Source: an uncultured Bacillota bacterium (GTDB taxonomy: Bacteria; Bacillota_I; Bacilli_A; RF39; UBA660). Taken from it: 43,614 nucleotides of DNA. A program made the position numbers and the translations under genes. The notes below the pieces were generated by a model. That model was not told the origin of the DNA and did not search any database. It was given only the letters and a program-made list of their open reading frames with translations. The stretch is from NCBI GenBank assembly GCA_947650795.1, contig CANSWR010000007.1, forward strand, positions 1 through 43,614. Reading direction: 5' to 3'. Below are positions 27,855-29,664 of this stretch, in pieces; the first letter of the stretch is position 1; each line of letters opens with the position of its first letter.

Positions 27855-28619
27855 TTAACTTACTTTAAGCATTTCAAGTCTTAGTTTATCTGCTATTGTT
27901 ACTATAAATTCTGAATTTGTAGGTTTTGCTTTATCTATATCTACAGAGTGTCCGAATATTTCTTCCATTAAGTCCCAATCTCCACGGTTCCAACTAACTT
28001 CAATTGCATGTCTTATTGCACGTTCTACTCTCGTTACACTTGTTTCATATTTTTCTCCAATGCTTGGATATAATTCTTTTGTTATTCCACCTATTAAGGA
28101 AGGATTATCATATACCATACTTATAGCGTCTCTTATATAGGTATAACCTTTTATGTGAGAAGGTATTCCTAATTCGTGAAGAATTTTTGTTACTGATATT
28201 TGGATATTACTGTCTGATAGATTTAATATTTTATTTGCTTTTTTCTTTTCAGAAGTTATACTTAATATTCTTTTTTCAAGTTCTAATAAGTCAAAAGGTT
28301 TTAATACAAAGTATTTTACTCCATATTCACTTATATTTCTTATTGTTTCTTGTTCATTATAGCTTGTAACTACTATTACATTTACATTAATTTTTGATTC
28401 TTTTATTGAGTCTAATACATATAATCCATCTTTTCTTGGCATGATTAAGTCTAGTAATACTGCGTCAATATTTTTATGGTTTTCTTTTAGTTTTTCCCAA
28501 GCTTCTTCTCCATCGTATGCTGTGTCTACAACTTCAATTGCTTTATTGTCACTAAAATATTCTTTAAGCATTTCAACCATTGCTTTGTTATCATCTACTA
28601 CCATAATTCTCTTTTTCAT
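27855..28619 (-). CDS. spo0A: sporulation master regulator Spo0A
   Basis: 254 residues. Receiver domain with acidic pair Asp9/Asp10 (VVDDNKA), phospho-acceptor Asp57 (VLLDLIMPRKDG), Thr85 (VVVTSYNEQ) and Lys107 (FVLKPFD). The C-terminal effector (about 140-254) has the Spo0A DNA-recognition region ELYPSIGEKYETSVTRVERAIRHAIEVSWNRGDWD. Phosphorylated Spo0A binds 0A boxes (TGTCGAA) and starts sporulation. The presence suggests, but does not prove, a sporulating lineage. Three TGTCG repeats with 10-bp spacing lie upstream. Confidence 0.95.
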   Translation of the reverse strand: MKKRIMVVDDNKAMVEMLKEYFSDNKAIEVVDTAYDGEEAWEKLKENHKNIDAVLLDLIMPRKDGLYVLDSIKESKINVNVIVVTSYNEQETIRNISEYGVKYFVLKPFDLLELEKRILSITSEKKKANKILNLSDSNIQISVTKILHELGIPSHIKGYTYIRDAISMVYDNPSLIGGITKELYPSIGEKYETSVTRVERAIRHAIEVSWNRGDWDLMEEIFGHSVDIDKAKPTNSEFIVTIADKLRLEMLKVS

Positions 28620-28662
28620 CTTTTTTCTCCTTATTTTTACTTTTTTATTATATTACATGTAT

Positions 28663-28694
28663 TATAAAATAAACTAGAGTTTTTATGCTCTAGT
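28663..28694 (-). terminator. terminator after the ORF6N gene
   Basis: Minus strand: ACTAGAG (28688-28694) - 8 nt - CTCTAGT (28673-28679), then TTATTTTAT. It isolates spo0A from the upstream gene. Confidence 0.65.
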
Positions 28695-28705
28695 TTTGTC
28701 TCAAA

Positions 28706-28736
28706 TTGTCGATTTTTGTCGTTAAATGTCGATTAC
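28706..28736. promoter_or_regulatory. three phased 0A-box-like repeats upstream of spo0A
   Basis: TGTCGAT (28707), TGTCGTT (28717) and TGTCGAT (28727) recur every 10 bp, one helix turn, about 90-115 bp upstream of the spo0A start. The Spo0A box consensus is TGTCGAA; each copy matches 5-6 of 7. They lie outside the ORF6N coding frame, after its stop. Confidence 0.5.
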
Positions 28737-28737
28737 G

Positions 28738-29664
28738 TTATTTTTCAATGATTGATAAAGAATTATTTATAGTTTTTGTTATTTTTTCTTTTAATGTATT
28801 TATTATTTCTTTTTCTTCAAGTTTATTAATGTTAAAAGTTTTACTTCCTGCATAATTTAGACTAGCTCCACAATGATACAAGGTTTTGTTATCTAATAAA
28901 AAATATCTATCATGAAAACTATCATCTTTTATTATAGTTAAATTATTGTATTGTAAATTGTATTTTTTGATTTCTTCTTTTGTTATTTTTGATTTTGTTT
29001 TGGTTATTAATATTACTTTTACTTGCAATTTTGAAATTATTTCTAATACATTTATGTCTGCATATCCATCTATAATTATCAATTGGTTTTTTGCATTTTT
29101 TAATATTTTTAAAATTCCTATGTAAGAGTCAAATATTTGGCCATCTAAATAAACTAATTCTTTTTGTTCCTTTTTATTGAAACTAGAAAATAATATTTCA
29201 AATTTCTTGTCGTGTTCTAATAGTTTTTTATCAATAGTTTCTACTTTATTAGATATATTTATGGTGTGTTCTAGTAAACTATTATTTTTTATAAAGTGTC
29301 TCATTTGAACAAAGGCATCCATAATTTTTATGCTAATTTCTTCTGAAACAGGTGTTTTTAGAATTGTTGCTAGCATTGCAACACCTTCTTCTGTAAAAGC
29401 ATATGGCAATGTTCTAATCATATTAATATTCTTTGTGGTTTCAAATTGAAACCGCAATTTTTCCAATTCTTCTTTAGTAATTTGAAACATAAATCTTTCA
29501 GGAAATTTATTTATATTTCTTTTAACTGCTAGATTTAATGATTTAGTGCCATTTTTGCAACCATACAATATTGCTAAGTCACTATCCAACATAACTTGTT
29601 TTTCTCTTATTTCATATATTAGCTTTTCTACTTTTAAATTTTCTTTGATTTCATTCACAAACAT
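28738..29664 (-). CDS. ORF6N-domain protein with C-terminal PLD-like half
   Basis: 308 residues. The N-terminal ORF6N domain (about 12-125) has the family pattern REKQVMLDSDLAILYG...KSLNLAVKRNINKFPERFMFQ and FTEEGVAMLATILKTP. A linker follows (130-170), then a C-terminal half with IIIDGYADINVLEII and SFHDRYFLLDNKTLYHCGASLNYAGSKTF, a phospholipase-D-like motif in which HxK is replaced by His-Asp-Arg (251-253). ORF6N domains come from phage antirepressor-type proteins; here no phage genes are nearby. DNA binding is likely; nuclease activity is uncertain. ATG follows AAGGAAAC. Confidence 0.8.
   Translation of the reverse strand: MFVNEIKENLKVEKLIYEIREKQVMLDSDLAILYGCKNGTKSLNLAVKRNINKFPERFMFQITKEELEKLRFQFETTKNINMIRTLPYAFTEEGVAMLATILKTPVSEEISIKIMDAFVQMRHFIKNNSLLEHTINISNKVETIDKKLLEHDKKFEILFSSFNKKEQKELVYLDGQIFDSYIGILKILKNAKNQLIIIDGYADINVLEIISKLQVKVILITKTKSKITKEEIKKYNLQYNNLTIIKDDSFHDRYFLLDNKTLYHCGASLNYAGSKTFNINKLEEKEIINTLKEKITKTINNSLSIIEK

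What the first reader, a model, noticed from the sequence alone, without database searches (positions are those of the whole stretch)
28706..28736. Three TGTCG repeats with exact 10-bp phasing upstream of spo0A
TGTCGAT, TGTCGTT and TGTCGAT begin at 28707, 28717 and 28727, on the same face of the helix, just past the stop and before the terminator of the neighbour gene. Spo0A boxes are TGTCGAA, so this may be an autoregulatory array with a changed last base. Phased tandem 0A-like boxes upstream of spo0A would be a variant worth comparing.
Basis: partly seen in the sequence, partly recalled or inferred. Interest (0 to 1): 0.55.

Follow-up and report, generated by a model that had tools for sequence, protein, structure and literature searches.

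The report
Tandem Spo0A boxes before spo0A
A row of evenly spaced short DNA repeats in front of the sporulation master-switch gene spo0A is very probably where the Spo0A protein binds to control its own gene; the kind of switch is known, but here it is longer than usual and kept across a group of uncultured gut bacteria.

Summary
TGTCGAT, TGTCGTT and TGTCGAT start at 28707, 28717 and 28727, with a weaker fourth unit (TGTCTCA) at 28697, all 10 bp apart. The array is a conserved promoter element of spo0A. It recurs upstream of spo0A in all 8 same-genus genomes that hold the full gene, although the neighbour gene differs. Across 100 relatives, CGACA lies within 200 nt upstream of spo0A in 98 and the exact reverse complement of the 0A box, TTCGACA, in 74; CGACA pairs occur only at spacings 10 and 20. 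Control stretches of the same loci hold CGACA in 3-7%. The nearest box keeps a fixed 43-44 nt to TATAAT in 59 of 75 anchored loci. The same phased boxes precede comK and a histidine kinase, and a differently spaced pair precedes a SigF-like operon. The Spo0A DNA-binding domain has the Bacillus recognition segment. Best reading: a tandem 0A-box array for Spo0A autoregulation. Binding, and whether it activates or represses, are inferred. Novelty is modest: a known kind of site, extended to four units in this genus. The 'terminator' is at most a weakly conserved hairpin.

The parts
28727..28733 (+). 0A-like box 1, TGTCGAT (spo0A strand: ATCGACA), farthest from spo0A
   Evidence: CGACA kept in 6 of the 7 genus loci where it is visible, exact TTCGACA in 4 of 7
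28717..28723 (+). 0A-like box 2, TGTCGTT (spo0A strand: AACGACA)
   Evidence: CGACA kept in 7 of 8 genus loci
28707..28713 (+). 0A-like box 3, TGTCGAT (spo0A strand: ATCGACA)
   Evidence: CGACA kept in 8 of 8 genus loci
28697..28703 (+). degenerate box 4, TGTCTCA (spo0A strand: TGAGACA), same 10-bp phase; start of the GACAAAACTAGA core shared with relatives
   Evidence: GACA kept in 7 of 8 genus loci; anchor of the family consensus
   Evidence: pairs kept 7,7,5,4,3,5,6,5 of 7 in the 8 genus loci; family consensus cTAGa.aatttt..cTcTag
28661..28666 (-). first TATAAT, 30 nt after the proximal GACA
   Evidence: offset 30 in 15 of 75 anchored loci
28647..28652 (-). second TATAAT, likely the -10 element, 44 nt after the proximal GACA
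   Evidence: offset 43 or 44 in 59 of 75 anchored loci; start of transcription inferred
27855..28619 (-). spo0A, 254 aa, receiver plus Spo0A_C domain; proposed binder and target
   Evidence: PF08769 137.9 bits; TIGR02875 272 bits, cut-off 200; solved Spo0A DNA-binding-domain chains 1lq1 and 1fc3
28738..29664 (-). ORF6N-domain gene, neighbour; not part of the element
   Evidence: PF10543 105.7 bits; other sequence, mostly tpiA, precedes the array in relatives

Best explanation
The repeats are a tandem array of Spo0A-binding sites (0A boxes): three good units and one weak unit, on the same face of the helix, in the promoter of spo0A. Phosphorylated Spo0A would bind as dimers on neighbouring boxes and, with four boxes, two dimers side by side. 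The array ends a fixed distance upstream of a sigma-A-like -10 element (proximal box near -60, others near -70, -80 and -90), so it most likely raises spo0A transcription in a steep, concentration-dependent way. Shown here: the array, its conservation, phase, fixed distance to TATAAT, and recurrence at comK and kinase genes. Inferred: Spo0A binding, cooperativity, the transcription start, and the sign of the effect (activation about 60:40 over repression).
For: Exact 0A box TTCGACA upstream of spo0A in 74 of 100 relatives and CGACA in 98 of 100, against 0 and 5 of 100 for the reversed strings and 3-7% CGACA in other stretches of the same loci. CGACA pairs only at 10 (22 loci) and 20 (13 loci); GACA pairs at 10 (54), 20 (24), 30 (17), every other spacing 0-3. 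In 9 genus genomes TGTCG pairs at spacing 10 lie on 20 contigs, mean 1.8 for other spacings. The array stays while the upstream gene changes. Same boxes at comK (8 of 8 genus genomes with comK) and at a KinB-like kinase (5 of 9). Recognition segment RVERAIRHAIEV identical to the solved Spo0A chains and invariant over 19 relatives except that the last two letters were compared by eye. Bases G2, C4, G5, contacted by Spo0A according to PMC3485338 (passages), are kept in all three window units. In that paper the C. difficile Spo0A DNA-binding domain binds spo0A upstream DNA most strongly, with multiple shifted species.
Against: No unit in the window is an exact TGTCGAA. No binding or expression data were found for this group. 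In B. subtilis the boxes at spo0A act mainly as repressors in one model (PMC12090719 abstract), so activation is uncertain. One divergent family member (L032, 37% identity) has no TTCGACA or TGTCGAA upstream and was left out of the 100. 46 of 100 loci have no two GACA units in phase 10, so long arrays are not required.
Confidence: 0.88

Rival explanations
1. The array is bound by Spo0A but works as a negative autoregulatory operator that caps spo0A expression.
For: In B. subtilis the 0A boxes at spo0A are mainly repressive in a fitted model (PMC12090719 abstract). Many boxes would bind early and saturate.
Against: All boxes lie upstream of the likely -10, ending 43-44 nt before it, not across the start site. 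At sinI an upstream box (-46) activates and downstream boxes repress (PMC11264516 passage).
Confidence: 0.35
2. Another direct-repeat-binding response regulator (OmpR/PhoB family such as PhoP or WalR) binds the array.
For: Phased direct repeats of about one turn are typical of that family (recalled).
Against: Their repeats are spaced 11 bp (recalled); GACA pairs at 11 bp occur in 0 of 100 loci. The core is the 0A box, exact in 74 of 100. Targets are Spo0A-type genes: spo0A, comK, sporulation-type kinase, sigF-like operon.
Confidence: 0.05
3. The repeats belong to the neighbour ORF6N gene (3' end, terminator or a site for its own protein).
For: They start 5 nt past its stop codon, and a hairpin that scores as a terminator follows.
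Against: The array stays when the gene upstream is tpiA or something else. Hairpin pairing and T tail are not kept: 3 to 7 of 7 pairs, 3 to 6 T of 8 in the 8 genus loci.
Confidence: 0.02
4. Chance repeat or local slippage.
For: The spacers are AT-rich and the single heptamer is not enriched in the window.
Against: Expected triples 1.5e-5 per genome; conserved in 8 of 8 genus loci and phased in the family.
Confidence: 0.01

Closest known systems
0A boxes of the Bacillus subtilis spo0A promoter (0A1-0A4, Pv and Ps promoters)
   Same: Spo0A sites upstream of its own gene; several boxes with interaction between occupied boxes (PMC12090719 abstract and section 5).
   Different: There the boxes lie between two promoters (sigma A and sigma H). 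Here one compact array lies in a fixed register upstream of a TATAAT; no sigma-H promoter was looked for by program.
Clostridioides difficile spo0A upstream region
   Same: Consensus 0A box about 75 nt upstream of the start codon, bound by the Spo0A DNA-binding domain (PMC3485338 passages).
   Different: Multiple bands there suggest more than one site; a four-unit 10-bp array is not described in the passages read.
Tandem 0A boxes of abrB and the Spo0A-C/DNA crystal structure (1LQ1)
   Same: Two boxes head to tail about one helical turn apart, bound by two Spo0A domains (recalled; only the title of the structure paper was seen).
   Different: The window has four units, three with the full GTCG core.

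Membership tests
Spo0A-binding 0A-box array | Core TGTCGAA or near match | tested here: met
   Window units have 1, 2 and 1 mismatches; exact in 74 of 100 relatives
Spo0A-binding 0A-box array | Contacted bases G2, C4, G5 of the core kept | tested here: met
   Kept in all three reported units; the fourth unit keeps G2 and C4 only (contacts from PMC3485338)
Spo0A-binding 0A-box array | Tandem boxes one helical turn (10 bp) apart | tested here: met
   10-bp pairs dominate in 100 loci and in 9 genus genomes
Spo0A-binding 0A-box array | Genome encodes a Spo0A with a conserved DNA-binding domain | tested here: met
Spo0A-binding 0A-box array | Same sites at other Spo0A-type targets | tested here: met
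   comK, histidine kinase, STAS plus SigF-like operon
Spo0A-binding 0A-box array | Protein binding in vitro or in vivo | not testable with these tools
   needs footprint, shift assay or ChIP
OmpR/PhoB-family operator (PhoP or WalR type) | Direct repeats 11 bp apart (recalled) | tested here: not met
   GACA pairs at 11 bp in 0 of 100 loci
Intrinsic terminator of the neighbour gene | Stable stem plus T tract kept with the gene | tested here: not met
   Scores as a terminator in the window, but 3-7 of 7 pairs and 3-6 T of 8 in the genus, and present without the ORF6N gene
B. subtilis-type Pv/Ps (sigma A / sigma H) spo0A promoter | sigma-H promoter downstream of the boxes | not tested
   only TATAAT elements were mapped

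The most novel reading that the evidence does not exclude
In this genus spo0A carries an expanded array of four (perhaps five, counting a degenerate CTAGA unit) helically phased 0A boxes, on which Spo0A~P could assemble as adjoining dimers or a short filament. That would give a much sharper autoregulatory threshold than the one or two boxes of relatives, and could be part of a rewired sporulation entry in a lineage where no SpoIIE was found and no match to SpoIIAB reached the family cut-off.
Probability: 0.3. Interest if true: 0.55.

Novelty: new member of a known kind. Interest (0 to 1): 0.36.

Why it matters
It extends Spo0A autoregulation by tandem boxes to uncultured gut Bacilli that cannot yet be tested genetically, with enough natural variation in box number (1 to 4) to ask how box number sets the sporulation threshold. 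It also gives a first outline of a Spo0A regulon (spo0A, comK, kinase, SigF-like operon) in a group that is probably the one predicted to form spores with a reduced gene set (order RF39, PMC10868615 passages; the placement of this genus in RF39 was not tested).

Tried and rejected
Tried: Rfam over the window gave only a 16S rRNA end, so no known RNA element lies in the array. Hairpin as neighbour's terminator: rejected. ORF6N as owner of the repeats: rejected. OmpR-type 11-bp repeats: not met. A search with up to 3 mismatches in the own genome was too loose: 63 hits against 98 for the reversed control. Of it only hits with 0 or 1 mismatch (comK, kinase, and one at the end of contig C19 with no clear target) were weighed; eight further or weaker sites were looked at and gave no clear target set.

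Rows dropped before counts: the set was 100 loci, namely 80 named loci (the best 80 of 560 confirmed) plus 20 of the unnamed ones. L006, L008-L011, L013 and L015 were left out as duplicates of named loci; L032 (37% identity, no box upstream) and L033-L034 (receiver only) were left out as not clear spo0A orthologues. In one search the stretches upstream and downstream have 95-99 loci because of contig ends. In one search, 75 of 100 loci passed the anchor (2 mismatches or fewer). In one search, 19 of 30 comK loci were parsed; 11 gave no frame by my motif, and for some of the 19 (L214, L216, L219) the start was misplaced, so the two genus loci among these were read (L067, L080). The loci are related by descent, so counts are not independent.

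Of the 20 contigs with 10-bp TGTCG pairs: 7 spo0A, 3 comK, 5 kinase, 5 others: one inside a coding start (L074), three upstream of unassigned or unrelated ORFs (L066, L068, L069), one not examined (G004:C39).

Full report
What is there. On the + strand TGTCGAT, TGTCGTT and TGTCGAT start at 28707, 28717 and 28727. A fourth unit, TGTCTCA, at 28697 keeps the phase. On the - strand, which carries spo0A (27855-28619; TIGR02875 272 bits, PF08769 137.9 bits), the array reads ATCGACATTT AACGACAAAA ATCGACAATT TGAGACAAAA CTAGAG. From the local TGTCG density about 1.5e-5 such triples are expected in the 1.52-Mb genome, and the genome has only two other places with a 10-bp TGTCG pair.

It belongs to spo0A. 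Eight of nine same-genus genomes (own included) hold a full spo0A; G006 has none above a receiver-domain match. In all eight the array stands roughly 80-120 nt upstream of the start codon, while the sequence beyond it is unrelated or is a different gene, mostly tpiA; the ORF6N gene stands there only in the window's genome among loci with enough upstream sequence. One contig (G004) starts inside the array. In the alignment the third unit has CGACA in 8 of 8, the second in 7 of 8, the first in 6 of 7 visible; the fourth has GACA in 7 of 8. The first unit is the exact 0A box (TTCGACA on the spo0A strand) in 4 of 7.

Wider conservation. In 100 spo0A loci (80 named ones, 20 unnamed), CGACA occurs in the 200 nt upstream in 98 and exact TTCGACA in 74; reversed control strings occur in 5 and 0. 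Pairs of CGACA occur at 10 bp in 22 loci and 20 bp in 13, at no other spacing from 5 to 30; GACA pairs occur at 10, 20 and 30 bp in 54, 24 and 17 loci, with 3 or fewer at any other spacing. Seven other stretches of the same loci (five farther upstream, one inside and one downstream of spo0A) show CGACA in 3-7% and almost no phased pairs. Chains of four phased GACA units were found in five loci, all of the window's genus; three-unit chains in four loci (three of them of the genus, one cut by the contig end); two-unit chains in 45; 46 have no phased pair. One divergent relative without boxes (L032) was excluded from the 100.

Promoter register. Anchoring 75 of 100 loci on GACAAAACTAG, a TATAAT starts 43 or 44 nt after GACA in 59; a second TATAAT at 30 nt occurs in 15, the window included. 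In the window these are 28647-28652 and 28661-28666. If the conserved one is the -10, the proximal box lies near -60 and the others near -70, -80 and -90 (inference). The scan found no sigma-70-type pair of hexamers ending at these TATAATs on the - strand.

Other targets. Phased boxes also stand before comK (PF06338) in the own genome (three units: TTAGACA, TTCGACA, TTCGACA) and in all 8 genus genomes in which comK was found, at 10- or 20-bp spacing. They stand before a membrane histidine kinase in 5 of 9 genus genomes; in the own genome that gene lies close to spoIVA on the same contig. A pair 26 bp apart stands before a STAS gene followed by a SigF-like sigma gene in 4 of 9. Two units precede dnaN in the own genome. 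Five of the 20 contigs with 10-bp pairs are unassigned, not examined or a coding coincidence.

Who binds. The window's Spo0A C-terminal domain aligns over its whole length to the solved Spo0A DNA-binding domains 1lq1 and 1fc3, with RVERAIRHAIEV identical; the same segment is invariant over 19 relatives. According to PMC3485338 (passages) Spo0A contacts G2, C4 and G5 of TGTCGAA; the three reported units keep all three. That paper also reports that the C. difficile Spo0A domain binds spo0A upstream DNA with its highest affinity and several shifted bands. Hence the array is very probably a tandem 0A-box array. Binding itself was not tested.

How it may work. Spo0A~P is thought to bind as a dimer, and a fitted model for B. 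subtilis suggests attraction between occupied boxes (PMC12090719 abstract and passages). Four boxes on one face of the helix would favour cooperative loading and a steep response. Position upstream of the promoter argues for activation; the B. subtilis model, in which the boxes are mainly repressive, argues for caution. I give activation about 60:40.

The 'terminator'. The dyad 28673-28694 scores as a terminator in the window (fold z -2.5). Over the genus its pairing falls to 3-6 of 7 in six of eight loci and the T tail weakens, yet the letters cTAGa..cTcTag persist in the family consensus. It is better seen as a promoter element of unknown role, though in the window it could also end transcripts of the neighbour gene.

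Setting. The relatives are uncultured, largely gut Bacilli (titles). I recall that Candidatus Scybalousia (L144) is placed in order RF39; this was not tested. SpoIVA was found in 8 of 9 genus genomes, SpoIIE in 0 of 9, and no SpoIIAB match reached the cut-off in 9, in line with the RF39 predictions in PMC10868615 (passages).

Novelty. Spo0A autoregulation and tandem 0A boxes are known. Searches for 0A box with tandem, 10 bp, RF39 and spo0A promoter listed no paper on this array by title or abstract; the library holds only open-licence papers. I file it as a new member of a known kind, with box number as the point of interest.

Noticed in passing
L063:2078-3075 (own genome C41), also L065, L077, L082: A SpoIIAA-like STAS gene runs directly into a SigF-like sigma gene without spoIIAB between them. 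In the genus no SpoIIAB match reaches the cut-off (0 of 9) and SpoIIE was not found (0 of 9), so control of this sigma factor may differ.
   Followed up: partly
L003:295-2016 (own genome C20): comK follows dnaN directly, and the DnaN C-terminal end precedes comK in many family loci: a competence regulator parked beside a replication gene.
   Followed up: no
L003:166-182: Two phased 0A-like units (TGTCGAA, TGTCATG) upstream of dnaN, which may link Spo0A to replication control.
   Followed up: no
window 28673-28694: Conserved partial dyad CTAGA...CTCTAG at the likely -35 region of spo0A promoters in the family; possible site of a second regulator.
   Followed up: partly
window 28738-29664: ORF6N-domain gene placed between tpiA and spo0A in this genome only, among the genus loci with upstream sequence; looks like a recent insertion.
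   Followed up: partly
G005:C22:210-388 and G008:C10:9017-9193: Local 12-bp tandem repeats holding TGTCG, not phased at 10 bp; unrelated to the array.
   Followed up: no
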